Shown: piece after piece, positions 23,225 to 48,278 of the stretch | How the letters are laid out: the number at the start of each line of letters is the position of its first letter | How positions within the stretch are numbered: position 1 is the stretch's first letter | Virus record (IMG/VR): IMGVR_UViG_3300033153_011833 | Location: 1 to 63,320 of that record | Reading direction: 5' to 3' (one strand) | Origin: a virus | DNA length: 63,320 nucleotides | Program-made: the position numbers and the translations under genes | The notes under the pieces: model-generated | The model's database searches: none | Told to the model about the DNA's origin: nothing | What the model saw: the letters and a program-made list of their open reading frames with translations, nothing else

Positions 23225-23392
23225 ATGACAACAAAAGAAATCAAACAGGCAAAAAAAATCATCGAAACCAAAAGACCAGCAGAAGGATATAGTACAATAC
23301 TATACAGTGATGGCAATATAGGACTCGAATGCCGTTACACTGACATCACCAAAATCTTTTGGACCCTCGCAGATGTACTCCAATGGGTATAA
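23225..23392 (+). CDS. Small early protein, unknown (55 aa)
   Basis: The first gene after the strong promoter. AAGGAG stands nine bases before the ATG. The protein reads MTTKEIKQAKKIIETKRPAE and ends in TKIFWTLADVLQWV: an N-terminal basic helix, a short beta hairpin, then a hydrophobic end. No family is recognised. First genes of phage early operons often encode host takeover peptides, so this is a candidate; that is inference only. Confidence 0.6.
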   Translation: MTTKEIKQAKKIIETKRPAEGYSTILYSDGNIGLECRYTDITKIFWTLADVLQWV

Positions 23393-23423
23393 TATTTTAA
23401 CTTTTATTAAGGAGCAACGTAAA

Positions 23424-23765
23424 ATGGAAAACTACACAAAAGAAACAATACTGAAGATGACTAAACAGGAATTACATGAGGCAAGAAGAGAATTATTAAA
23501 AGGTGAAATCAATGATAATTGCTCGAACTGCTCATACTGCTCACGCTGCTCATACTGCTCATACTGCTCATACTGTTCGGACTGCTCATACTGCTCACAC
23601 TGCTCAGATTGTTCATACTGCTCAAACTGCTCGGACTGCTTAGAATGCTCAGACTGCTCAGACTGCTCGCACTCAGTTGGGCTTAAAAAGGGGCGATATT
23701 TGATTTGCAACGTGCAGTTAACAGAAGAAGAATACCAAACTAAAATTAAAGAATTGAATTTATAA
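23424..23765 (+). CDS. CSX tripeptide-repeat protein 1 (113 aa)
   Basis: The start ATG 23424 is preferred because AAGGAG lies nine bases before it. The N-terminus (MENYTKETILKMTKQELHEARREL) is helical. Residues about 36-88 are 17 consecutive tripeptides of the form X-Cys-Ser, where X is mostly Tyr, Asp, His or Asn; one unit ends in Leu. The C-terminus (SVGLKKGRYLICNVQLTEEEY...) is shared with a longer paralog at 47775..48278. Cys at every third residue could bind metal ions or form disulfides in a thin regular helix. I do not know this family. The DNA repeat is 9 bp and also leaves antisense frames open. Confidence 0.8.
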   Translation: MENYTKETILKMTKQELHEARRELLKGEINDNCSNCSYCSRCSYCSYCSYCSDCSYCSHCSDCSYCSNCSDCLECSDCSDCSHSVGLKKGRYLICNVQLTEEEYQTKIKELNL

Positions 23766-29962: not shown

Positions 29963-30835
29963 ATGGACTTACTCAAAATCTTAACATCTTTTGATATACC
30001 ATATAAAACAGAAGGACATCACCACTGTCGTGAAGGATGGATAAATATTGATTGTCCTTTTTGTGGAAAAGATACTCACAAATGGCATATGGGATATTCA
30101 ATAGAAGGAAATTATTTCAATTGTTGGCGATGTGGTCATCATCGTCTAATTGATACCCTTATGGAAATAACTGGATTATCATATGCAAAGTGCAAATCCA
30201 TTCTCAAAAACACAGAACCCACCAAAAAGAAAAAGAAAAAACCAATTCACGGTCAATATAAACCACCATTAGGAATAGGCAAACTGCTAAAAGCCCATCG
30301 TAAGTATTTACACGATAGAAATTTTAACCCCCAAGAATTAGAATCCCTTTGGAAAATAAAAGGAATAGGAATAGCAAATAGATTATCATGGAGGATTTTC
30401 ATTCCCATCATATATCATAAACAGTTAGTCAGTTGGACTACTCGGACCATTTCAAAATCAAATAATACCACTAGATACATAAGTGCTTCCCCAAAAGAAG
30501 AATCTATACCCCATAAAAACATTCTATATGGAGAGGATTTTGTTAGAAAAACAATTATCATTACGGAAGGTCCTTTTGATGTTTGGAGAATAGGACCTGG
30601 GGCTGTTGCAACTTTGGGAACCAACTACTCCAACGAACAAATGTTTAGGATGACAAAATATCCCAAAAGAATTATATGCTTTGATAATGAACCCGTTGCT
30701 CAAAAACAGGCTGAAAGGCTTTGTGCAGACTTATCCGTCTTTCCAGGGGATACCTTCAATCTTCAATTAGAAGCAAAGGACGCAGCTTCAGCCAGTATAA
30801 AGGAAATTAAAAAAATAAAAAATCTTTTAGAATAA
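29963..30835 (+). CDS. DNA primase (CHC2 zinc finger plus Toprim)
   Basis: The 290-residue protein has an N-terminal CHC2-type zinc finger (CPFCGKDTHKWHMGYSI...CWRCGHH) and a C-terminal Toprim domain with ITEGPFDVWRIG (catalytic Glu) and IICFDNEP (Asp). It lacks a helicase domain, which is supplied separately by the DnaB-like gene. It would synthesise RNA primers at the fork. It starts one base after the SNF2 gene. Confidence 0.9.
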   Translation: MDLLKILTSFDIPYKTEGHHHCREGWINIDCPFCGKDTHKWHMGYSIEGNYFNCWRCGHHRLIDTLMEITGLSYAKCKSILKNTEPTKKKKKKPIHGQYKPPLGIGKLLKAHRKYLHDRNFNPQELESLWKIKGIGIANRLSWRIFIPIIYHKQLVSWTTRTISKSNNTTRYISASPKEESIPHKNILYGEDFVRKTIIITEGPFDVWRIGPGAVATLGTNYSNEQMFRMTKYPKRIICFDNEPVAQKQAERLCADLSVFPGDTFNLQLEAKDAASASIKEIKKIKNLLE

Positions 30836-30845
30836 TTTATTTTTC

Positions 30846-30874
30846 TTGCAATTAACAAAATCCATTATTACAAT
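30846..30874 (+). promoter_or_regulatory. Promoter before the initiator gene
   Basis: TTGCAA (30846..30851), a 17-base spacer and TACAAT (30869..30874) make a plausible sigma70 promoter. The RNA would begin near 30881, just before GGTGTACAAA, and so carry the attenuator-like leader described at 30883..30983. Confidence 0.6.
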
Positions 30875-30882
30875 ACTGGAAT

Positions 30883-30983
30883 GGTGTACAAACAAAACGA
30901 AACAACTCGACAAAATAGAACCTACTGGAGACACCTCCCGGACTCCCTAGTCCTTTTGTACACCTATCTCCAGTAGGTTTTTA
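30883..30983 (+). promoter_or_regulatory. Leader RNA with competing stems (attenuator-like)
   Basis: AACCTACTGGAGA (30919..30931) pairs perfectly with TCTCCAGTAGGTT (30967..30979) and is followed by TTT, a Rho-independent terminator. Its loop holds a small GGACT/AGTCC hairpin and TTTGTACACC (30955..30964), which is perfectly complementary to GGTGTACAAA (30883..30892) at the 5' end of the message. The two long stems cross, so they form either a pseudoknot or a switch. The initiator ATG is 14 bases beyond the U-run. Confidence 0.65.
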
Positions 30984-30996
30984 AGGGATATCAAAA

Positions 30997-31698
30997 ATGA
31001 AAAATGAAAAGTCTTATTATGCCGTTATACCTGCTCCTGTCAGATATTGTCAAAACCTGTCTCCAAATGCAAAATTACTATATGGCGAAATAACAGCACT
31101 ATGTAATAAGGAAGGATATTGCTGGGCGTCCAATAATTATTTCGCCAAATTGTATGGTGTTCATACTATAACAATCAGTAGATGGATTAAGAATTTGGAG
31201 GATAATCATTTTATAATTTGTAAAATGAAAAATAAGAATAAAAGAAGAATTTATATTCATGAACCCTTAGCAAAAATGCTAAGGGGGTTTAGCAAAAATG
31301 CTAAGGGGGTTAAGCAAAAATGCTTAGGGTATAATAATAATATAACTAATAAAACAAATATATCTGTTAAAATGATTGATAAAAGATTTGCCATGAAATT
31401 ATTTAAGTTAGTACGGGCTAAAAGAAAAATAAATATCAATCATCAAAAATGGTCCTGTCATTTTGCAAAATTAAGGGTCAAATCTGGAATAAAAAAACAA
31501 AGAATTGCCAAGGTATTAAATTGGTATGAAAATCATATTGGAGAAAGATTTGTGCCTGTATCATATTCAGCCGGAAGTTTTTGCAGTAAATTTCTTAGAA
31601 TAGAAGATGCCATGAACCGATACATTGAAAATATCGAATCTGGCGAAGCTCCTCTTGTGTATAAAAAACGTATTGTAAAACATACGATTGTCGATTAA
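30997..31698 (+). CDS. Replication initiator-like protein with iterons in its gene
   Basis: The 233-residue protein has an N-terminal winged-helix/HTH (LSPNAKLLYGEITALCNKEGYCWASNNYFAKLYGVHTITISRWIKNLEDNHFI) of the type found in phage and plasmid replication initiators. The middle (residues about 90-110) is LAKMLRGFSKNAKGVKQKCLG, translated from three iterons in the DNA. The C-terminal half is basic and helical. The DnaB-like helicase follows, so this gene is the likely origin-binding protein, like lambda O. Confidence 0.78.
   Translation: MKNEKSYYAVIPAPVRYCQNLSPNAKLLYGEITALCNKEGYCWASNNYFAKLYGVHTITISRWIKNLEDNHFIICKMKNKNKRRIYIHEPLAKMLRGFSKNAKGVKQKCLGYNNNITNKTNISVKMIDKRFAMKLFKLVRAKRKININHQKWSCHFAKLRVKSGIKKQRIAKVLNWYENHIGERFVPVSYSAGSFCSKFLRIEDAMNRYIENIESGEAPLVYKKRIVKHTIVD
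31267..31329 (+). repeat. Three 22-bp iterons (candidate replication origin)
   Basis: Three copies of a 22-bp unit, core AGCAAAAATGCT, lie at 31269..31280, 31291..31302 and 31313..31324, an exact 22-base spacing. Each has an internal dyad: TTAGCA/TGCTAA in the first two and TAAGCA/TGCTTA in the third. They sit inside the initiator gene and are followed at once by an AT-rich stretch (31330..31385), just as in lambda ori. Confidence 0.85.
31330..31385. other. AT-rich stretch beside the iterons (candidate unwinding element)
   Basis: This stretch is almost all A and T (TATAATAATAATATAACTAA and onward) and lies immediately right of the three iterons. In iteron-type origins the AT-rich element is melted by the bound initiator. 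It is coding as well. Role inferred from arrangement. Confidence 0.6.
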
Positions 31699-31719
31699 AT
31701 CAAATATAGGAGTAATGCA

Positions 31720-33120
31720 ATGCGAATAGAGAAAAAAAACAGCAACAAAGAACGACTCATTTTAATAGGAATGATTGTTGACATAAATGTTCTTGGACGC
31801 ATCAATTCTAAATGGCATCAAAACATGTTCAAAAGCAAATGGGCTAATATTGTAGCTAAATGGTGTATCTCTTTTTATCGAAAATATGAAGAAGTGCCTA
31901 TGAATCAGATTGAAAGTTTGTTTGAATCTTGGGCTTCTGAAACTAAGGATAAGCAAATCATATTATTGGTGGAACGTTTTCTTGATTCATTATCAAAAGA
32001 ATATGAAGAGCTTCAAACAGAATCAAACAGTGATTACATTATAGATATTGCAAGTGAATACTTTAATCAAGTAAGAATAGAACGGCTTATCGAATCCCTA
32101 CAAGGAGACCTAGATAATAATGAAATAACCAAAGCCATCAATCGTACGATATCTTTCAATCAAATTGAAATGGGGGTAGGTGAAGGTATAGATGTTCTTC
32201 AAGACAAGATAGCAATAAAAGAAGCCTTAAGAAACAAAAGAAAATCCATTATAGAATTTCCAGGTGCTTTGAATAGGTTTTTGCAACACTCATTTGAACG
32301 AGATTCTTTTATAGCATTTATGGGTTCTGAAGGCCGGGGCAAGAGTTTTATTCTTCAGGAAATAGCATGGCAGGCAATGTTGCAACGAAAGAAGGTGGTT
32401 CTATTTGAGGCGGGAGATATGAGCCAAAACCAAATAATGAGGCGGTTTTTAGTGCGAGCAGCAAGGCATCCGATATTTCCTAAAACAATTGAATACCCAA
32501 AAGCCATTTTTGTAGATGGTAATGGTGAAAAAGAAATAGAGTTTGAAACAAGAAGATTCAAGGAAAAATTAGATTTTAAGATAGCTATGAAAGCTTGTGA
32601 AAGGATTATGAAAAGGAAAATCAAAAGCAAGCATTCGTATCTTAAATTATCAACCCATCCTAATTCAACCCTATCCGTAAATTCTATTCGTAGTATTTTA
32701 GAAAATTGGGAGCAGGAAAATTGGGTGCCTGATGTAATTATAATAGATTATGCCGATATTTTAGATATGTCCTACCCCGGAATGGAAGGACGTGACCGTA
32801 TAAACGAAACATGGAAGCAGTTACGAGCTTTATCACAAATTTATCATTGCCTTTTGATAACAGCCACCCAAGCCGATGCCGCCTCTTATGACTCCAATTT
32901 AATACGAAGGAAGAATTTTTCTGAAGATAAACGAAAATATGCTCATGTGACTGGTATGATAGGGATAAATCAAACGGAGGAAGAAAAAAAGCTAGGAGTT
33001 ACCAGATTAAATTGGCTCAAATTGCGAGATGGGGCATATTTTGAAACCACTTGTGTTTATTTGGTCGGTTGTTTAGACATAGCGAACCCAATGATAAAAA
33101 GTGCTTGGAAAGGGGATTGA
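31720..33120 (+). CDS. DnaB-like replicative helicase
   Basis: The 466-residue protein has an N-terminal helical domain and a RecA-type ATPase core: Walker A GSEGRGKSF (residues about 202-210), Walker B VIIIDYADI (about 343-351), and a late TATQADAAS (sensor-like) with GMIGINQTEEEKKLG. It would be the hexameric fork helicase loaded at the iteron origin. It follows the initiator by 21 bases. Confidence 0.88.
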   Translation: MRIEKKNSNKERLILIGMIVDINVLGRINSKWHQNMFKSKWANIVAKWCISFYRKYEEVPMNQIESLFESWASETKDKQIILLVERFLDSLSKEYEELQTESNSDYIIDIASEYFNQVRIERLIESLQGDLDNNEITKAINRTISFNQIEMGVGEGIDVLQDKIAIKEALRNKRKSIIEFPGALNRFLQHSFERDSFIAFMGSEGRGKSFILQEIAWQAMLQRKKVVLFEAGDMSQNQIMRRFLVRAARHPIFPKTIEYPKAIFVDGNGEKEIEFETRRFKEKLDFKIAMKACERIMKRKIKSKHSYLKLSTHPNSTLSVNSIRSILENWEQENWVPDVIIIDYADILDMSYPGMEGRDRINETWKQLRALSQIYHCLLITATQADAASYDSNLIRRKNFSEDKRKYAHVTGMIGINQTEEEKKLGVTRLNWLKLRDGAYFETTCVYLVGCLDIANPMIKSAWKGD

Positions 33121-33121
33121 T

Positions 33122-33286
33122 ATGGAAGATAGAACTGTACGAGCATTTGTAGAGGAATCGTTACTCAATAGGAGAACGTCCCGCCAAATCTTAATAGTGA
33201 CAAAGAATACTAGGTGGGCATCGCATATTAAGGAAGTAAAAAAGGTGCTTAAGAGTTTTTCTGGAAAAATTAAAAAAAGATTTTAG
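33122..33286 (+). CDS. Small basic protein (54 aa)
   Basis: The ATG follows the DnaB-like stop by one base. The 54 residues (MEDRTVRAFVEESLLNRRTS...) are basic and mostly helical, ending in GKIKKRF. No family is seen. It may be an accessory of the helicase. Confidence 0.5.
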   Translation: MEDRTVRAFVEESLLNRRTSRQILIVTKNTRWASHIKEVKKVLKSFSGKIKKRF

Positions 33287-33351
33287 ATTTTTGATGGATA
33301 AGGCAATAATAGAATATAGGGGCAAAAAGGGATTTTGAAAAGGACGAAAAA

Positions 33352-33804
33352 ATGAAAGATGAAATCAAAAGAGAACTTAAAAAAATTAAAAAACAACACG
33401 GTGGATTGTTAAGAGCTCGTGATGTCGTTAACTATGCAAGGGATAGTAAAACAGCTTTACACAATTGTTTTGAATGGGACGACAAAATAGCTGGTGAAGC
33501 ATATCGCATTCACCAGGCGAGAAGGATAATAAATGTACATGTCGAAATGATGCCAAATGCAACAGAGCCTATGAAAGTTTTTGTTAGCCTAAAAAAAGAC
33601 AGGTGCAAACCTGGAGGGGGTTATCGAGAGATGAAACGTATTATAAAGGTAAAGCCCTGGAGAGAGGCTTTGTTTGAACAGGCGTTAGATGAGTTAATAT
33701 CAATAAAAAAACGATACAAACAAATAAGAGAAATTGTAATTGCTGTAGAACCTGCTATCGATGCAATTATTAAAGCCAAAAAACAAGAAAGGAAAGTTGG
33801 GTAA
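33352..33804 (+). CDS. Conserved phage protein, unknown (150 aa)
   Basis: A 150-residue helical protein with LLRARDVVNYARDSKTALHNCFEWDDKIAGEAYRIHQARRII, a pattern I have seen in many phages next to recombination genes and often to the gene that follows here. There is no catalytic motif. Its stop lies at the beginning of a G-rich pentamer array. Function unknown. Confidence 0.7.
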   Translation: MKDEIKRELKKIKKQHGGLLRARDVVNYARDSKTALHNCFEWDDKIAGEAYRIHQARRIINVHVEMMPNATEPMKVFVSLKKDRCKPGGGYREMKRIIKVKPWREALFEQALDELISIKKRYKQIREIVIAVEPAIDAIIKAKKQERKVG

Positions 33805-33918
33805 GGCAGGTGTGGTACGGTAAGGTTGGGTGGGGTCTGGTCCGGTACGGTGTGGTCAGGTAAGGCAGGTATGGTGCGGTGAGGTCGGGTCTGGTGGGGT
33901 GGGGTGGGGTAAGGCAGG
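33802..33918. repeat. TNNGG pentamer array 1
   Basis: The 117 bases are made only of TNNGG pentamers and three TAAGGCAGG spacers: spacer at 33802..33810, ten pentamers to 33860, spacer at 33861..33869, eight pentamers to 33909, and spacer at 33910..33918. The NN varies (GT, AC, AA, TG, GG, CT, CC, CA, AT, GC, GA, CG). GG every five bases allows two-quartet G-quadruplexes. It begins at the stop of the upstream gene and ends before the next ribosome site. Confidence 0.9.
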
Positions 33919-33949
33919 TAAATTCTAACATTTTGGAAAGAACAGGAAA

Positions 33950-34612
33950 ATGGCAAAGACAAAAAAGAAAAAAGCAGAAAAGGTTGATGGGGTTCATCTT
34001 ACAATAGCTCCCCCAAATATGGAAACGGGACGATTTCTTATTAGGGGGACATCGCCTTTGGTTATGAATAAATTCTCACACAAAGCAAAAGTGGAGATGA
34101 TGGAAACACAAAAGGCAGGAAGCACAGCAAAAAAAGGAAAGAAAAGGGCCCCAAAAGATTTTAAGACTATGTGTGAAGCAGCAAAACATATATCTACTCA
34201 AGGATGGTGCGGTATTCCTGCTCCGGCTTTCCGCAATGCAATGGTTTCCGCTTGTAAGATTGTGGGGTTTGCTATGACCCGTGCAAAATTATCTGTGTTT
34301 ATAGAAGCAGATGGTTTTGATAAAGATGATGGCACTCCCCTTGTAAAAATCACAAAAGGCAAATCCAAACGATTGGACCTTCCTGTACGAATAGCAATGG
34401 GGTCAACCGATATTCATTCTCGTCCAATGTGGGAACCTGGTTGGGAAGCTCTTGTTCGTATAAGATATGATGCTGACCAATTCACATTGGAGGATATTTC
34501 AAATCTCCTTGTTCGTGTGGGTATGCAAACAGGAATACTTGAAGGACGTCCTGACAGCAAATCCTCTTGTGGGATGGGTTGGGGTTTGTTCGATGTTTGC
34601 GGAACCAAATAA
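33950..34612 (+). CDS. Conserved phage protein flanked by two G-rich arrays (220 aa)
   Basis: The 220-residue protein has a Lys-rich start and then an ordered alpha/beta domain: IRGTSPLVMNKFSHKAKVEMME, GIPAPAFRNAMVSACKIVGFAMTRAKL, EADGFDKDDGTPLVKITKG, ISNLLVRVGMQTGILEGRPDSKSSCGMGWG. I recognise this as a widespread phage family of unknown function. The Gly-rich end is reminiscent of RAMP-type RNA-binding folds, but that is only a resemblance. GGAAAG precedes the ATG. TNNGG arrays lie on both sides. Confidence 0.75.
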   Translation: MAKTKKKKAEKVDGVHLTIAPPNMETGRFLIRGTSPLVMNKFSHKAKVEMMETQKAGSTAKKGKKRAPKDFKTMCEAAKHISTQGWCGIPAPAFRNAMVSACKIVGFAMTRAKLSVFIEADGFDKDDGTPLVKITKGKSKRLDLPVRIAMGSTDIHSRPMWEPGWEALVRIRYDADQFTLEDISNLLVRVGMQTGILEGRPDSKSSCGMGWGLFDVCGTK

Positions 34613-34616
34613 TATG

Positions 34617-34675
34617 GCAGGTGAGATTAGGTATGGTAAGGTCGGGTAGGGTCGGGTAAGGCAAGGCAAGGCAGG
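34617..34675. repeat. TNNGG pentamer array 2
   Basis: After GGCAGG come TGAGA, TTAGG, TATGG, TAAGG, TCGGG, TAGGG, TCGGG, TAAGG, then CAAGG twice and CAGG. It ends in the same AAGGCAGGTAAA as array 1. It begins two bases after the stop of the flanked gene. The match in unit, ending and position shows the two arrays are related. The rest of the gap to 34776 holds only AT-rich sequence and the next ribosome site. Confidence 0.88.
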
Positions 34676-34776
34676 TAAAGCTATTTTCAAAAAAGATTTC
34701 AGATTTTTGGTAAAAATCACAATAATAAATAGGAGAATAATCCCCACAACAAAATTTTATATGGAAAGGGCAAAAC

Positions 34777-35388
34777 ATGAAATTAACCGTTAAAAAAGAA
34801 ACTGTTATAGAACTATTTGAAACAATAGGTTTCAAAACAGTTAGAACCAAAGATGACGAATGGCTTTTGAAAAAGGCAAAAGAACTTCCTGAAATTGTCA
34901 ATGCTGCCAATGTTAAAAACCCCAAAATGAAAAGACTTTTGAAATCATTAGCAAATGCTTCCGAAATTGCTTTCAAAGACGGAAAGAAAAAGGTTTCAAA
35001 AAAAGAAGATAAAACACCGAAACCAACGAAGGCAACGAGGACAAAAAAGAAAATCAAACAAACTGAAAAAAAGACAGAACCAAAAAAGAAGAAAACCAAG
35101 CAAACTAAAAGAAAAGCTGTGAGTAAAACCAACGGAGGGAAGAAGAAAAAGACAACAAAGAAAACAAAAGCCAAGAAGACAGAATCTACTGGAAAAGATA
35201 TCTTTGGCACTCGTCTAAGTAGTAAGATGTCAAAAGTTAATAAATGCTTGAATGAAAACCCAAAAAGCATGAAAGAGCTTATGAAGCAATCTGGGATAGA
35301 AACATCTTTTTACAATCATCTTAATGGACTCGTTAAAAAAGGTCTGGTCCAAAGGGATGATAACAAAAAGTATTTTTTGAAAAAGTAA
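34777..35388 (+). CDS. Two-domain protein with Lys-rich linker and C-terminal winged helix (203 aa)
   Basis: An N-terminal helical domain (residues 1-65, MKLTVKKETVIELFETIGFKTV...) is joined by about 75 residues of Lys/Thr-rich low complexity to a C-terminal winged-helix-like unit (SKVNKCLNENPKSMKELMKQSGIETSFYNHLNGLVKKGLV). The first domain belongs to a common phage family of unknown function; the last looks DNA-binding. A chromatin-like or nucleic-acid-tethering role is plausible. Confidence 0.65.
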   Translation: MKLTVKKETVIELFETIGFKTVRTKDDEWLLKKAKELPEIVNAANVKNPKMKRLLKSLANASEIAFKDGKKKVSKKEDKTPKPTKATRTKKKIKQTEKKTEPKKKKTKQTKRKAVSKTNGGKKKKTTKKTKAKKTESTGKDIFGTRLSSKMSKVNKCLNENPKSMKELMKQSGIETSFYNHLNGLVKKGLVQRDDNKKYFLKK

Positions 35389-35406
35389 TACACAAAAAGG
35401 AATTTT

Positions 35407-35461
35407 GGCAGTAGGAGTGTTTCTGACACAGACTGAAACGTGGGTTAAAGCCCCACCTGCC
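35407..35461 (+). ncRNA. Three-way-junction structured RNA candidate (55 nt)
   Basis: GGCAG (35407..35411) pairs with CTGCC (35457..35461). GTTTC (35419..35423) pairs with GAAAC (35435..35439). GTGGG (35440..35444) pairs with CCCAC (35452..35456) around a seven-base loop TTAAAGC. Helices two and three abut, as do three and one, which is tRNA-like without a D arm. TTTT follows. It stands just before the methyltransferase gene, whose ATG lacks a good ribosome site. It may be a regulatory leader, a terminator or a tRNA mimic. Confidence 0.45.
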
Positions 35462-35471
35462 TTTTACTATT

Positions 35472-36095
35472 ATGAAAAACCATAAAATAGATATATTTGG
35501 AAATGTGGTAAGTAAAAATCCTTTACTAAGGGATGTTTTTATTATGCCCCCATTTTCTGTCATGGACGCTCGGGAAGGGAATTGGCAAAAACGGAAAAGA
35601 CAGTGGATTGAAATAGGAATTCAAAGTGAGTTGGGAAGAGGGGAAGACATTCTTTTTGATAATGGCCGTGTGCGTGATTTAGACTACTATAGGAAAAGAA
35701 ACAAAGCATGTCCAGGAGGTTCCCCACGACTGGCCTGTGATTATTCTAATAGGGAAAAAGGGGATGGTAGAGGAAGACCCCTTGTCCATTCAAAAAAACT
35801 TACAAAGAAAAAAGTGAATGGATTAACATTTAGCAGCACCGGTTTCATGGCAGATATTATAAATAAAAGGGGAGGTGGGACTTCTATCTTTGACCCTGTG
35901 CTATGTGAGCTTATGTATAAATGGTTTTGTCCTGCTAACGGAAAAATATTTGACCCATTTGCAGGAGGTAGCGTTAGGGGTATTGTTGCAAATTATTTGG
36001 GTTACCACTACACAGGAATTGATTTAAGTAAAAACCAAATCGAGTCTAATAGACAACAAGCTCGAAAGATTCTAAAAGGTAACGAGCCCAAATGA
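35472..36095 (+). CDS. DNA methyltransferase, N-terminal part (stopped by in-frame TGA)
   Basis: 207 residues. The first part is a basic target-facing region, and residues about 155-190 hold the SAM-binding motif I KIFDPFAGGSVRGIVANYLG followed by YTGIDLSKNQIESN. The frame ends at TGA 36093..36095, after GNEPK. In the same frame the next codons give IIGDGRDCLSLAKGKYDFVFSCPPYGD, the rest of the enzyme. In homologues I recall, the junction reads PKW-I-GD, so TGA replaces a Trp TGG. The order I then IV is of the gamma type. Alone, this piece lacks the catalytic SCPPY motif. Confidence 0.8.
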   Translation: MKNHKIDIFGNVVSKNPLLRDVFIMPPFSVMDAREGNWQKRKRQWIEIGIQSELGRGEDILFDNGRVRDLDYYRKRNKACPGGSPRLACDYSNREKGDGRGRPLVHSKKLTKKKVNGLTFSSTGFMADIINKRGGGTSIFDPVLCELMYKWFCPANGKIFDPFAGGSVRGIVANYLGYHYTGIDLSKNQIESNRQQARKILKGNEPK

Positions 36096-36119
36096 ATTAT
36101 AGGGGATGGAAGGGATTGT

Positions 36120-36581
36120 TTGTCATTGGCAAAAGGAAAATATGATTTTGTTTTTAGTTGTCCCCCATACGGGGACTTGGAAGTATATAGTGATGATAAA
36201 AGAGATTTATCTACATTAGATTATCCTAATTTTCTAAAGGGGCACTCTAAAATAATAAAAAGAAGTGTTATGATGCTAAAACAAAATAGATTCGCTTGTT
36301 TTGTTGTGGCCAATATACGAAACAAAAAAACGGGTTTTTATAACACGCTTGTGTCTGATACAATCAAAATTTTTCAGAAGGCGGAGGCTTTTTTCTACAA
36401 TGATATTATTTTAGTTACAGCCATAGGAAGCCTGCCTGTTCGAGTCAGTAAACAATTCAAAAGTGGTCGTAAAACAGGGAAAACACATCAGAATGTTCTC
36501 ATTTTTTACAAAGGGGACACTAGAAAAATAAAAGAGAATTTCAGGGAAATTGAAAAAGTCAGATTGGAAAAGGGGGATTGA
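36120..36581 (+). CDS. DNA methyltransferase, C-terminal part (catalytic SCPPY)
   Basis: The same frame as the preceding gene, after the TGA. A TTG at 36120 (LSLAKGKYDF...) could start translation, but it has no ribosome site, so read-through is as likely. The 153 residues carry the catalytic motif IV SCPPYGDLEVYSDD, and later FACFVVANIRNKKTGFY, LVTAIGSLPVRVSKQF and KTHQNVLIFYKGD, typical of phage N4/N6 methyltransferases. The piece lacks the SAM-binding motif I, so by itself it cannot be active. It may be a recently broken gene, a read-through product or two interacting halves. Confidence 0.75.
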   Translation: MSLAKGKYDFVFSCPPYGDLEVYSDDKRDLSTLDYPNFLKGHSKIIKRSVMMLKQNRFACFVVANIRNKKTGFYNTLVSDTIKIFQKAEAFFYNDIILVTAIGSLPVRVSKQFKSGRKTGKTHQNVLIFYKGDTRKIKENFREIEKVRLEKGD

Positions 36582-36658
36582 TGAATTCACTCCTACCAAA
36601 TAAAGAATTACAAAAAAATTAAACAAGAAATCATTTTTTGATTAAGAAAGGAAAAGAA

Positions 36659-37672
36659 ATGAAGATAAATAGAGAAAAACTTTTAGGTCAACTGGAATCT
36701 ATTCTACCAGGTTTATCCACAAGAGAAATAATAGAACAATCATCCTGTTTTGTTTTTCAGAACAAAGTGGTGATGACTTATAATGATGAGGTGGCCTGCA
36801 CCCAAGAATCATGCCTCCCTGTTACAGGAGCCATACCAGCTACGCCCCTTATATCCATTCTTCGCAAATTGAAGGAAGAAGAATTGGAAATAACAATCGA
36901 TAAAAAAGAATTGTTGATTAAAGGTAATCGAAAAAAAGCAGGCATCAGAATGGACGCTGATATTTTACTTCCAATCAATTTGGTGGAAAAACCTAAAAAA
37001 TGGAAAGACCTGCCCGACGATTTTGCAAATGCTATAACTATTGTCAAACAGTGTGCAGGAAAAGATGAAACCAAGTTTTCACTGACCTGTGTACGACTCA
37101 CGCCCAAATGGATAGAAGCTTGTGATGGTTACCAAGCAGCCAGATATACAATAAAAATGGAAGTAGAAAAACCCACTCTTGTAAGAAAAGAATCTATAAA
37201 ATACATAGAAGAATTGGGCGTGTCAGAATTTAGTGAAACAAAGAATTGGATTCATTTTAGAAATTCTTCCGGACTTATTTTGAGTTGTCGTCGATGGGTT
37301 GAGGATTTTCCAAAATTATCAAAGCTATTACAAATCACAGGAACCCCCACCAAGTTTCCAAAAGGATTAACAGAAGCAGTAGAAAAAGCCGAGATTTTCT
37401 CAGCAGAAAATGTAGAAGATAACCAAATAGAAATAAACATCAAACCCAACAAGCTTCAAATTATTGGTAGAGGCGTTTCTGGATATTATCAAGAAATAAA
37501 GGACATAAAATACAAAGGAAAGCCTTTGTCATTTAGAGTTGCTGCCTGCCTATTTGCCAACTTAATCCGTCACCACAACACCTGTGAAGTAACCAAAGAT
37601 AGATTAAAAATAGCCGTTGGGAAATACACCTACGTTACTGTTCTTCAAGCAATTATCCCAGGAGAAAAATAA
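36659..37672 (+). CDS. Sliding clamp-like (DnaN/beta-type) protein
   Basis: The ATG at 36659 follows AAGGAAAAG. The 337 residues show the three-domain repeated beta-alpha pattern of bacterial beta clamps (about 110 residues each): LLISILRKLKEEELEITIDKKELLIKG in domain one, AITIVKQCAGKDETKFSLTCVRLTPK in domain two, and IEINIKPNKLQIIGRGVSGYYQEIKDI in domain three, ending VTVLQAIIPG. Sequence is diverged, so the call rests on repeated pattern and on the UDG-polymerase and clamp-loader genes nearby. It would tether the polymerase. Confidence 0.7.
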   Translation: MKINREKLLGQLESILPGLSTREIIEQSSCFVFQNKVVMTYNDEVACTQESCLPVTGAIPATPLISILRKLKEEELEITIDKKELLIKGNRKKAGIRMDADILLPINLVEKPKKWKDLPDDFANAITIVKQCAGKDETKFSLTCVRLTPKWIEACDGYQAARYTIKMEVEKPTLVRKESIKYIEELGVSEFSETKNWIHFRNSSGLILSCRRWVEDFPKLSKLLQITGTPTKFPKGLTEAVEKAEIFSAENVEDNQIEINIKPNKLQIIGRGVSGYYQEIKDIKYKGKPLSFRVAACLFANLIRHHNTCEVTKDRLKIAVGKYTYVTVLQAIIPGEK

Positions 37673-38871
37673 TGAAAAAGGGGTTCTTCTCATCATCCAG
37701 TTTTCAAACCAAGGAAAAGATTCTCACAACCACTCGATGCGGTTTATGTGGACGTTATAAAAATTGTAAATCCCCTAAAATGCCCCCTACAGGCAAAGGC
37801 AGAAAAAAGATATTATTTATAGCTGAAGCTCCGGGTGCAGAAGAAGATAGGAAAAATATGCAGTTGGTTGGTCCATCCGGTCAATTTCTAAGGAAACACC
37901 TAAAAAAAATGGAGGTTGATTTGGATAAGGATTGTTGGAAAACAAATGCCGTTATATGCTTTAAGAAAAATAACGAAACTCCTAATAAAAAGGTAATAGA
38001 AGCTTGTCGGCCAAATCTAATGAGAACGATAAAACAGTATCAACCAAATGTAATTGTGCTCCTTGGTAAAATAGCAATAAGTTCTTTGATATCTGCTTTG
38101 TGGAAAACAGATGAAGGAGTTGTAAACAAATGGGCGGGATACTCTATACCTTGTCAAAGTTTGAATGCTTGGATTATTTGTACCTACCATCCTGCTTATT
38201 TACTAAGAAAAAATGATAAGGTCCTAAATAGATTTTTTGAAAATCATTTAAGGACTGCCCTACATAAATCTAAATCCAAACCTTGGAAAAAAATTCCTAA
38301 TTATAACAATCAAATTGATATTATAATGAACCCATTGCAAGCTGTAAAAGAAATTGAGAAAATAAAAGATGGTCCAATTGCTTTTGATTATGAAACTAAT
38401 TGTTTGAAACCTGAAGGAAAAGGCACCAAATTGGTTTCTTGTTCGATATGCTGGAAAGGGAAAAAGACAATAGCTTTTCCAATGGAAAAAGGAGTTGTTA
38501 CAGCGGTAAGCCGGTTGCTAAAATCGCCTATTCCTAAAATAGCAAGTAATATGAAGTTTGAAGATAGATGGACAAGAACGAAACTGGGACACCCTGTTAG
38601 AAATTGGTTGTGGGACACAATGATAGCCGCTCATGTTATAGACAACTCTCCTGGTGTAACAAGTATTAAATTTCAATCTTTTGTTTTTCTAGGAGTAGAA
38701 TCTTATAATGACGTTGTCAAACCTTTTTTTGAATCAGGCAAAGACAGATTCAATCGAATACACGAAATAGATTTGAATGATTTGTTATTATACAACGGAT
38801 TGGATAGTCTATTGGAATATAAGGTGGCAATGAAACAAATGCATGTTATGAAAGGATTAAAAAATGAGTAA
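37672..38871 (+). CDS. Uracil-DNA glycosylase fused to 3'-5' exonuclease
   Basis: The 399-residue protein is a fusion. Residues about 20-200 are a family 4-type uracil-DNA glycosylase: a CxxC start (C23, C26, C32) of iron-sulphur type, IAEAPGAEED (50-58), VGPSGQFLRK, and CTYHPAYLLRK (170-180). Residues about 225-395 are a DnaQ-like exonuclease: FDYETN (ExoI, 238-243), ASNMKFEDRW (ExoII) and YNGLDSLLEYK (ExoIII). It corresponds to the N-terminus of phage UDG-PolA fusions, but here the polymerase is a separate gene at 40013 after three other genes. It would proofread and remove uracil at the fork. Confidence 0.88.
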   Translation: MKKGFFSSSSFQTKEKILTTTRCGLCGRYKNCKSPKMPPTGKGRKKILFIAEAPGAEEDRKNMQLVGPSGQFLRKHLKKMEVDLDKDCWKTNAVICFKKNNETPNKKVIEACRPNLMRTIKQYQPNVIVLLGKIAISSLISALWKTDEGVVNKWAGYSIPCQSLNAWIICTYHPAYLLRKNDKVLNRFFENHLRTALHKSKSKPWKKIPNYNNQIDIIMNPLQAVKEIEKIKDGPIAFDYETNCLKPEGKGTKLVSCSICWKGKKTIAFPMEKGVVTAVSRLLKSPIPKIASNMKFEDRWTRTKLGHPVRNWLWDTMIAAHVIDNSPGVTSIKFQSFVFLGVESYNDVVKPFFESGKDRFNRIHEIDLNDLLLYNGLDSLLEYKVAMKQMHVMKGLKNE

Positions 38872-39869: not shown

Positions 39870-40029
39870 TTTAGAAAAAGAAAAGTTTGAAGAATATAAG
39901 AAAATGGCTGAGGAACACGCAAATTTTTTATGTGAAAAAATTTTCAAGCCTGCTTTTATTATGGCATTTGTTCATGGAGCAAAACATATGTATGATGAAT
40001 TAAAGGATAAAGATGAAACCAATAACTAA
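39862..40029 (+). CDS. Small helical protein (55 aa)
   Basis: The ATG overlaps the end of the MazG-like gene, and the last codons overlap the polymerase start at 40013. The 55 residues (MADLEKEKFEEYKKMAEEHA...) form a helix and a short hydrophobic stretch (AFIMAFVHGAKHMY). No family is known. Overlaps on both sides support translation. Confidence 0.55.
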   Translation: MADLEKEKFEEYKKMAEEHANFLCEKIFKPAFIMAFVHGAKHMYDELKDKDETNN

Positions 40030-41392
40030 CAAAGGTTATCAATTATTACATAATGGAACAATAGCTCTGTCCCAAGTAGAAGCTAACGGCATCAGGGTAG
40101 ATACTAATTATCTTAATCGAGCAATCAATCATACCAAACAACAAATTGAAAAAATAACAATCAAAATGAAACAAGACAGGATGTTCAAATTATGGCAAAA
40201 AAAGTATGGAACCAAAACTAATATGGGCTCAAGAAACCAATTGGGCACTATACTTTTTTCGATAATGAAATATCCATGCGAAGCTCATACAGATTCTGGA
40301 AGACCTAAAACAGATGAAACTGCTTTGGGTAAAGTTAATTTGCCGTTTGTTAGAAATTTCCTTAAATTGGAACGGCTCAAAAAAACGAATTCTACGTATT
40401 TACAAGGAATTCTTCGTGAAACGACAAATGGTTTTTTACACCCTTTTTTCAATCTTAATTTTGCCCGTACCTATCGGAGTAGCAGTGACCATCCTAATTT
40501 TCAAAACATGCCCATACGGAATCCCCAAACGGCAAAATTAGTTAGAAGAGCTTTTATTTCCAGACCTGGCCATCAAATTGTGGAAACTGATTACAATGGG
40601 GCAGAGATTCGTTGTGCAGTTTGTTATCATAAAGACCCAAGAATGATTTCTTATATTAAGGATGGAAAAAAAGATTTACATAGAGATATGGCGGGGCAGT
40701 GTTTTTATTTGCCTAAGAATCAAATAACAAAAGATGTTCGATTTTGTGGAAAAAATATGTTTGTATTTCCCCAATTTTATGGAGATTACTATCTTCGTTG
40801 TGCCGAGAATTTATGGAAAGCTATCGGTCAAATGAAACTCAAAAGAAAAGATGGAATTGATTTATATCAGCATCTGAAAAACAAAGGAATTTATAAATTA
40901 GGGAAATGTAACCCAAAAGAATCCCCAGTTGCAGGAACATTTGAACACCATTTACAAAAAGTAGAAGATATGTTTTGGAATGATTGGTTTAAGGTATATC
41001 AGCAATGGAAAGAAAAATGGTACACTGATTATGTCAATCGAGGTTATTTTGATACCTTAACAGGGTTTAGAATTGAAGGGTTTTATAATCGAAAAGAAGT
41101 AATCAATTATCCTGTGCAGGGTTCAGCTTTTCATTGGCTACTGTGGTCCTTGATTCGGATTCAAAAATTACTAAAAAAGTATAAAATGAAAACCTTAATA
41201 ATCGGGCAGATTCACGATAGTATTGTGGCTGATGTATTCAAAAAGGAATTGAAAACCTATTTAGAAATAGTGAATCAAGTAATGACCATTGATATAAGAA
41301 AACATTGGAAATGGATAATTGTTCCGCTATCAATAGAGAACGAAGCATCGCCCGTAAATGGAAACTGGTATGAGAAAAAATTAGTAAATTAA
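40013..41392 (+). CDS. Family A DNA polymerase (polymerase domain only)
   Basis: The 459-residue protein has the polymerase motifs in order: a start like the PolA thumb, the segment ARTYRSSSDHPNFQNMP (residues 151-167), motif A VETDYNGAEIR (190-200, Asp 193), motif B KDVRFCGKNMFVFPQFYG (240-257) and motif C IGQIHDSIVA (398-407). There is no exonuclease domain; that is in the UDG fusion at 37672. It is thus a two-gene split of a polymerase usually made as one chain. The start overlaps the small helical gene. Confidence 0.9.
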   Translation: MKPITNKGYQLLHNGTIALSQVEANGIRVDTNYLNRAINHTKQQIEKITIKMKQDRMFKLWQKKYGTKTNMGSRNQLGTILFSIMKYPCEAHTDSGRPKTDETALGKVNLPFVRNFLKLERLKKTNSTYLQGILRETTNGFLHPFFNLNFARTYRSSSDHPNFQNMPIRNPQTAKLVRRAFISRPGHQIVETDYNGAEIRCAVCYHKDPRMISYIKDGKKDLHRDMAGQCFYLPKNQITKDVRFCGKNMFVFPQFYGDYYLRCAENLWKAIGQMKLKRKDGIDLYQHLKNKGIYKLGKCNPKESPVAGTFEHHLQKVEDMFWNDWFKVYQQWKEKWYTDYVNRGYFDTLTGFRIEGFYNRKEVINYPVQGSAFHWLLWSLIRIQKLLKKYKMKTLIIGQIHDSIVADVFKKELKTYLEIVNQVMTIDIRKHWKWIIVPLSIENEASPVNGNWYEKKLVN

Positions 41393-47774: not shown

Positions 47775-48278
47775 ATGAAAAAATACACGAAAGAAGCAAT
47801 ACTAAAGATGACTAATCGGGAATTACATAAAGTAAGAGGAATGTTATTAAAAGGTAGAGCCAATGCTGACTGCTCACACTGCTCATACTGCTCATACTGC
47901 TTGAATTGTTCACACTGTTCAGAATGCTTGGGCTGCTCGGATTGCTCAGATTGCTTGGACTGCTCGGATTGCTTGGGCTGCTCATATTGCTCAGATTGCT
48001 TGGACTGCTCGAATTGCTCAGATTGCTCACACTGCTCAGATTGTTCAAACTGCTCATACTGCTCACACTGCTCAGATTGTTCATACTGCTCATACTGCTC
48101 ACACTGCTCAGATTGTTCATACTGCTCATACTGTTCGGACTGTTTGGACTGTTTGGATTGCTCAAACTCAGTTGGGCTTAAAAAGAGGCAATATATGATT
48201 TGCAACGTGCAGTTAACAAAAGAAGAATATGAAACTAAAATTAAAGAATTGAGTTTAGAAGCGATAAACAATGAATAA
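47775..48278 (+). CDS. CSX tripeptide-repeat protein 2 (167 aa)
   Basis: This longer paralog of 23424..23765 has the same helical start (MKKYTKEAILKMTNRELHKVRGML), then 33 X-Cys-Ser (or X-Cys-Leu) tripeptides over residues about 36-134, and the same end (SVGLKKRQYMICNVQLTKEEYETKIKEL). The ends are much alike, but repeat number nearly doubles, so the repeat tract expands and shrinks. X is mostly Asp, Tyr, His or Asn. Cys density would allow a long metal- or disulfide-rich rod. It lies downstream of the recombinase. Confidence 0.8.
   Translation: MKKYTKEAILKMTNRELHKVRGMLLKGRANADCSHCSYCSYCLNCSHCSECLGCSDCSDCLDCSDCLGCSYCSDCLDCSNCSDCSHCSDCSNCSYCSHCSDCSYCSYCSHCSDCSYCSYCSDCLDCLDCSNSVGLKKRQYMICNVQLTKEEYETKIKELSLEAINNE

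What the first reader, a model, noticed from the sequence alone, without database searches (positions are those of the whole stretch)
34617..34675. Second TNNGG array on the other side of the same gene
The shorter array has the same unit and the same ending AAGGCAGGTAAA as array 1, and the pair brackets one conserved phage gene of unknown function. Bracketing repeats suggest a swappable cassette or a regulated block.
Basis: partly seen in the sequence, partly recalled or inferred. Interest (0 to 1): 0.72.

Follow-up and report, generated by a model that had tools for sequence, protein, structure and literature searches.

The report
Guide-RNA arrays of a VIPR system
The two five-letter repeat arrays around this phage gene are guide-RNA arrays, and the gene is their protein partner: together they form a VIPR system, a CRISPR-related RNA-guided DNA-binding system first described in a 2026 preprint and thought to let one phage repress its rivals.

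Summary
A GGTNN array lies at 34613-34679, right after the gene at 33950-34612; the partner array lies before it, and both end in AAGGCAGGTAAA. The arrays do not bracket a swappable cassette. They are guide (vrRNA) arrays of a VIPR system (PMC13142463), and the gene is vipr. A profile of 58 homologues matches the solved SUSP1 Vipr protein (PDB 36pp, E=8e-44). The AlphaFold model matches CRISPR RAMPs (Csm3/Cas7; Z about 12). Gene and array are linked both ways. Of 56 viral loci found by array pattern alone, 42 carry the gene, median 51 bp away, 41 on the same strand. In 25 loci chosen by gene alone, unbiased period-5 detection finds almost only GGYNN arrays, on the gene strand. NN is near random with no duplication signature. 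A GGCA spacer divides the arrays into guides; the window holds three, of 11, 9 and 10 units. The upstream ORF (33352-33804, phrog_15946) is a candidate accessory protein: all 28 homologues found lie in vipr loci. No natural target was found. New member of a known kind.

The parts
33352..33804 (+). candidate VIPR accessory protein (vap), 150 aa, phrog_15946
   Evidence: phrog_15946 E=7e-19; all 28 homologues found in the fetched loci lie in vipr loci, most directly adjacent. AlphaFold pLDDT 92, mostly helical, no significant PDB fold match.
33799..33922 (+). array 1 (upstream vrRNA array), two guides separated by GGCA
33809..33863 (+). guide a, 11 GGTNN units; NN = GT AC AA TG GG CT CC AC GT CA AA
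   Evidence: delimited by GGCA at 33805-33808 and 33864-33867.
33868..33912 (+). guide b, 9 GGTNN units; NN = AT GC GA CG CT GG GG GG AA
   Evidence: delimited by GGCA at 33864-33867 and 33913-33916.
33950..34612 (+). vipr gene, 220 aa RAMP protein, phrog_4652
   Evidence: PDB 36pp SUSP1 Vipr; RAMP fold, Csm3/Cas7.
34613..34679 (+). array 2 (downstream vrRNA array; the finding)
34620..34669 (+). guide c, 10 GRYNN units; NN = GA TA AT AA CG AG CG AA AA AA
   Evidence: delimited by GGCA at 34616-34619 and 34670-34673.
33273..33293 (+). 21-nt repeat AAAAAAGATTTTAGATTTTTG overlapping a weak sigma-70-like match, upstream of the vap candidate (possible promoter)
   Evidence: promoter matches are no more frequent than in shuffles, so weak.
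34689..34709 (+). second copy of the 21-nt repeat, after array 2 (possible promoter of the next gene)
   Evidence: weak.
34777..35388 (+). neighbouring gene with C-terminal TrmB-like winged helix; not shown to belong to the system
   Evidence: PF01978 E=2e-6; it did not group with neighbours of vipr in other loci.

Best explanation
The locus is a VIPR (Viral Interference Programmable Repeat) system. Arrays 1 and 2 are transcribed with the operon and give three guide RNAs of 9-11 GGY-NN units, set off by a 4-nt GGCA unit. Vipr subunits (ORF 33950-34612) coat each guide, one subunit per five-nucleotide unit: the GGY triplets are held by the protein and the NN dinucleotides are exposed. The exposed NN pairs read double-stranded DNA with one skipped base between pairs (xNNxNN). 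Binding represses transcription of a competing phage, satellite or prophage, possibly helped by the accessory protein from ORF 33352-33804. Shown here: the repeat anatomy, random NN, the gene-array linkage, membership in the Vipr sequence family, the RAMP fold, and accessory-gene linkage. Taken from the preprint for other members: RNA binding, the 1-nt skip rule, repression, and rival elements as targets. Inferred: one subunit per unit, the guide boundaries at GGCA, and that the window's own system is active and works the same way.
For: Profile of 58 homologues hits PDB 36pp 'SUSP1 Vipr protein' over its full length, E=8e-44; even the 14 closest relatives give E=2e-6. The model of the window protein (pLDDT 89.8, pTM 0.83) matches CRISPR RAMPs at the top (Foldseek E 5e-6; VIA Z about 12). 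Array-only search: 42 of 56 degenerate-array loci encode the protein (43 after iteration), against 4 of 63 loci whose arrays are perfect repeats. Gene-only search: 15 of 25 loci have GGYNN arrays by a strict detector that allowed any triplet, and nearly all detected arrays are GGY on the gene strand; others have weaker or more distant arrays. NN random, adjacent-unit identity 6.4% against 6.8% expected. 106 of 110 segments between GGCAGGY delimiters are whole multiples of 5 nt, mostly 8-12 units, near the 9-16 units reported for vrRNAs. The array RNA is unstructured (z=0.67), as a guide would be. Published mechanism: PMC13142463.
Against: No natural target was found: exact 1-nt-skip searches for guides a and c gave nothing in viral contigs and guide a nothing in 84,980 genomes. 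Guide b gave two hits, about the number I expect by chance, in GC-rich contigs. No structured 3' tail like that of the SUSP1 clade was identified. The window protein alone does not hit 36pp by single-sequence search. Transcription is not shown. Guide c ends in three AA units, has one GAT triplet, and could be decaying.
Confidence: 0.94

Rival explanations
1. Swappable cassette: the arrays are recombination boundaries that let the bracketed gene be gained, lost or exchanged between phages.
For: Arrays flank the gene; gene order with the phrog_15946 neighbour is swapped between the window and most relatives; guides are exchanged between close relatives, with chimeric guides; a 21-nt repeat flanks the whole block.
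Against: Gene is constant and guides change. Arrays often lie on one side only, or beyond the accessory gene. Conserved GGY with random NN gives poor homology for recombination. Protein family and fold are Vipr/RAMP.
Confidence: 0.03
2. Regulatory binding array: the transcribed GGUNN repeats bind the bracketed protein as an oligomer that controls its own operon (like TRAP on NAG repeats) without any guide function.
For: Five-nucleotide period, gene-strand orientation, protein linked to its own array; TRAP-like period recalled from memory.
Against: Up to about 180 GGT triplets in one locus, GGCA-delimited units of similar size, whole-unit turnover with NN kept in shared units (20 of 318 NN differences). 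A pure scaffold gives no reason to keep NN. The published members act as guides.
Confidence: 0.03
3. Neutral low-complexity repeat made by replication slippage.
For: About half of the pattern-scan hits in viral contigs were such perfect repeats.
Against: In degenerate arrays neighbours share NN no more than chance; GGT kept while NN is random; linkage to one protein family.
Confidence: 0.005

Closest known systems
VIPR of Escherichia phage SUSP1 (type II; PMC13142463, PDB 36pp)
   Same: Phage-encoded single RAMP protein; GGY/NN repeat arrays in gaps around the gene; hypervariable NN; small accessory gene; units per guide in the same range.
   Different: Window protein is only distantly similar (found by profile, not by single sequence). 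Guides here are punctuated by GGCA and run into one another; no SUSP1-type structured tail found; accessory gene is phrog_15946, whose relation to vap1-6 could not be checked.
VIPR-like loci next to phrog_4652 genes in Cyanophage Cy-LDV1, Mycobacterium phage Saal and Gordonia phage ODay (annotated 'hypothetical protein')
   Same: Same gene pair (phrog_4652 and phrog_15946) and GGCNN arrays with GGCAGG punctuation.
   Different: GGC instead of GGT in GC-rich genomes; array position differs.
Class 1 CRISPR RAMPs (Csm3, Cmr subunits, Cas7)
   Same: Fold (VIA Z about 12); oligomerise on a guide RNA (literature).
   Different: No CRISPR array, no cas genes recognised beside it, five-nt unit with fixed GGY, noncontiguous reading.
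TRAP binding arrays (NAG triplets, 2-nt spacers; recalled from memory)
   Same: Five-nucleotide period of triplet plus two free bases.
   Different: Triplet, protein fold and array modularity all differ.

Membership tests
VIPR system | Vipr protein, a RAMP homologue of about 20 kDa | tested here: met
   Profile hit to 36pp E=8e-44; RAMP fold; 220 aa.
VIPR system | RNA-coding arrays of alternating GGY/NN, 9-16 units per vrRNA, in gaps around vipr | tested here: met
   Units of 11, 9 and 10 on the gene strand in both flanking gaps. Transcription itself not tested.
VIPR system | GGY conserved, NN hypervariable | tested here: met
   for 57 loci; the window arrays show the same.
VIPR system | Encoded mainly by phages or proviruses | tested here: met
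   Virus record with terminase, portal and replication genes.
VIPR system | Adjacent vap gene | tested here: inconclusive
VIPR system | Invariant 3' tail after the repeats | tested here: inconclusive
   Both arrays end AAGGCAGGTAAA; no conserved structure found.
VIPR system | Targets in competing elements by the 1-nt skip rule | tested here: inconclusive
   No exact target for guides a and c; guide b only chance-level hits.
VIPR system | vrRNAs expressed and bound by Vipr; DNA binding and repression | not testable with these tools
   Needs RNA-seq, pull-down and reporter assays.
CRISPR-Cas class 1 | CRISPR array of repeats and contiguous spacers with cas genes | tested here: not met
   No such array among the window's tandem repeats; no CRISPR effector family match in the three locus proteins, only weak CARF/Csa3-like winged-helix matches (E 0.001-0.004) in ORF 34777-35388.
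Swappable cassette with recombination boundaries | Gain or loss of the bracketed gene with the arrays | tested here: not met
   Gene kept, guides change in five close relatives; array position relative to the gene varies.

The most novel reading that the evidence does not exclude
The window belongs to a VIPR branch, defined by the phrog_15946 partner, in which arrays are continuous strings of guides punctuated by a 4-nt GGCA unit that serves as both the end of one guide and the start of the next. In this branch guides are gained, lost and recombined within guides quickly while vipr stays nearly constant, so the branch has a way of renewing guides without CRISPR-type acquisition genes.
Probability: 0.3. 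Interest if true: 0.68.

Novelty: new member of a known kind. Interest (0 to 1): 0.5.

Why it matters
VIPR was described only in 2026, from two experimentally studied clades, as a relative and possible forerunner of CRISPR. This window adds an uncultured phage with a compact, complete-looking locus. Independent evidence, starting from the repeats rather than the protein, shows that array and protein form one module across very diverse phages, including mycobacteriophages and a cyanophage whose genes are still called hypothetical. The GGCA punctuation gives a simple way to cut arrays into guides and so to predict targets, and the guide turnover in near-identical phages poses the open question of how new guides arise.

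Tried and rejected
Literature search for GGTNN or pentamer repeats in phages gave nothing relevant; the system surfaced only through the profile search of solved structures. Target searches with the 1-nt skip rule: guide a in viral contigs and in genomes, 0; guide c, 0; guide b, 2 in GC-rich contigs, judged chance; two Saal guides, 0; a guide shared by four related phages, 0; 170 decoded guides against the fetched loci showed no excess at skip 1 over skips 0, 2 or 3 (its one perfect match is the contig fetched by that very search). No self-target in the window. Rfam: nothing in 30000-38000, so no hammerhead ribozyme recognised. Slippage and G-quadruplex ideas dropped: NN has no duplication signature, and the third base Y is also conserved. 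Host could not be told: polymerase matches in known phages are below 30% identity. Accessory protein fold: no significant match, only weak winged-helix resemblance at E above 1. SUSP1 Vipr (36pp) itself does not appear in the structure search listing; that library ends in April 2026. The 13 array loci left without a homologue after iteration include arrays at locus ends and short arrays inside ORFs.

Full report
OBSERVATION. The array is real and where stated. In the window, five consecutive GGTNN units occur only in two places, both on the + strand; 100 shuffles give none. Array 1 covers 33799-33922, array 2 covers 34613-34679. Each starts at the stop codon of the gene before it and both end AAGGCAGGTAAA. 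Between them lies ORF 33950-34612 (220 aa), phrog_4652 of unknown function with no Pfam match. The window is a 63,320-base virus record with terminase, portal and replication genes; the host is unknown.

THE ARRAYS ARE NOT SIMPLE REPEATS. They fall into two classes: perfect repeats, often inside ORFs, and degenerate arrays, mostly in gaps between genes with GGT on the coding strand. In 152 degenerate runs from 57 loci, all 16 NN dinucleotides occur at 4-11%, and neighbouring units share NN 6.4% of the time against 6.8% expected. So the arrays show no trace of having grown by tandem duplication, while GGT is held fixed. The commonest 4-nt break is GGCA.

GENE AND ARRAY ARE ONE MODULE. Relatives of the bracketed protein at 45-64% identity, and at about 30% in Mycobacterium phage Saal and Gordonia phage ODay, have GGCNN or GGTNN arrays beside the gene in many cases. 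The converse holds. Of 56 loci fetched only because of a degenerate array, 42 encode a homologue, median distance 51 bp, 41 of 42 on the same strand; of 63 loci with perfect repeats, 4 do. One more was found by iterating the profile. In 25 loci picked by the gene alone, a detector for any period-5 triplet found almost only GGCNN and GGTNN, on the gene strand, in 15 loci. Of seven gene-picked relatives in which the strict detector found little or nothing near the gene, six have imperfect GGYNN arrays on their contigs; in each of these six, all hits lie on one strand.

WHAT THE GENE IS. A profile of 58 homologues matches PDB 36pp, 'SUSP1 Vipr protein', over its full length with E=8e-44; a profile of the 14 closest alone gives E=2e-6. 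AlphaFold on 55 sequences gives pLDDT 89.8 and pTM 0.83. The best structural matches are CRISPR RAMPs: Csm3 of type III-A, the type VII Cas7, Cmr subunits and the Cas7-like parts of gRAMP (Foldseek E 5e-6; VIA Z about 12 over about 150 residues). The preprint PMC13142463 describes VIPR systems: one RAMP protein, guide RNAs of 9-16 YNNGG repeats with conserved GGY and hypervariable NN, targets read with one skipped base per NN, and repression of competing phages. The window fits the parts of this description that sequence can test.

GUIDES. In loci with the phrog_15946 neighbour, segments between GGCAGGY sites are whole multiples of 5 nt in 106 of 110 cases and mostly 8-12 units long. I read each as one guide, with GGCA as punctuation. 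Loci without that neighbour almost lack it (3 segments in 2 loci). The window then holds three guides, of 11, 9 and 10 units. The preprint mentions 'staggered arrays with overlapping vrRNAs', which may be the same thing; the supplement could not be read. The array RNA has no stable fold of its own (z=0.67).

ACCESSORY GENE. ORF 33352-33804 belongs to phrog_15946. All 28 homologues in the fetched loci lie in vipr loci, mostly directly adjacent; none was found in the other fetched loci. Its model is confident but mostly helical with no significant match. Order differs: vap-array-vipr-array in the window, vipr-array-vap in most relatives. It is a candidate vap; its class is unknown.

TARGETS. [quoted passage not shown] guide b has two chance-level hits. 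Negative results are weak, because targets may be unsequenced or mismatched. The skip rule was not independently confirmed here.

TURNOVER. Five near relatives (L029, L096, L104, L109, L119; vipr 91-100% identical) carry 5-9 guides each but share few, even at over 99% vipr identity. Shared guides keep their NN (20 of 318 positions differ, among pairs chosen for at least 75% unit identity), and some guides are chimeras that share one half only. So guides, not the gene, are the exchangeable part. These are metagenomic contigs, so assembly errors in repeats are a caveat.

VERDICT. Expression, RNA binding and target repression in this phage are inferred from family membership.

Noticed in passing
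23373-23765 and 47775-48278: Two ORFs built on 9-bp repeats (ACTGCTCAx); the second encodes a Cys-rich triplet-repeat protein (CSxCSx...), and both match phrog_15341 of unknown function.
   Followed up: partly
35472-36095 and 36120-36581: A DNA methyltransferase is split into two ORFs that match consecutive parts of phrog_12517; a stop or frameshift, or a sequencing error.
   Followed up: no
37672-38871 and 40013-41392: Family A DNA polymerase in two ORFs: a uracil-DNA glycosylase domain fused to the 3'-5' exonuclease, and a separate polymerase domain, with a RusA-like (phrog_3007) ORF and a MazG-like ORF between them.
   Followed up: no
33273-33293 and 34689-34709: An exact 21-nt repeat flanks the vap-array-vipr-array block; each copy overlaps a weak promoter-like match.
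   Followed up: partly
L029, L096, L104, L109, L119: Near-identical phages with largely different guide sets and chimeric guides.
   Followed up: partly
L018 5600-5900: A relative of vipr has GACNN-like rather than GGYNN sequence in the adjacent gap, possibly a related consensus.
   Followed up: no
L140 7607-7785, L141 8583-8730, L139 15682-16606: Mycobacterium phage Saal, Gordonia phage ODay and Cyanophage Cy-LDV1 carry VIPR-like loci whose genes are annotated as hypothetical.
   Followed up: yes
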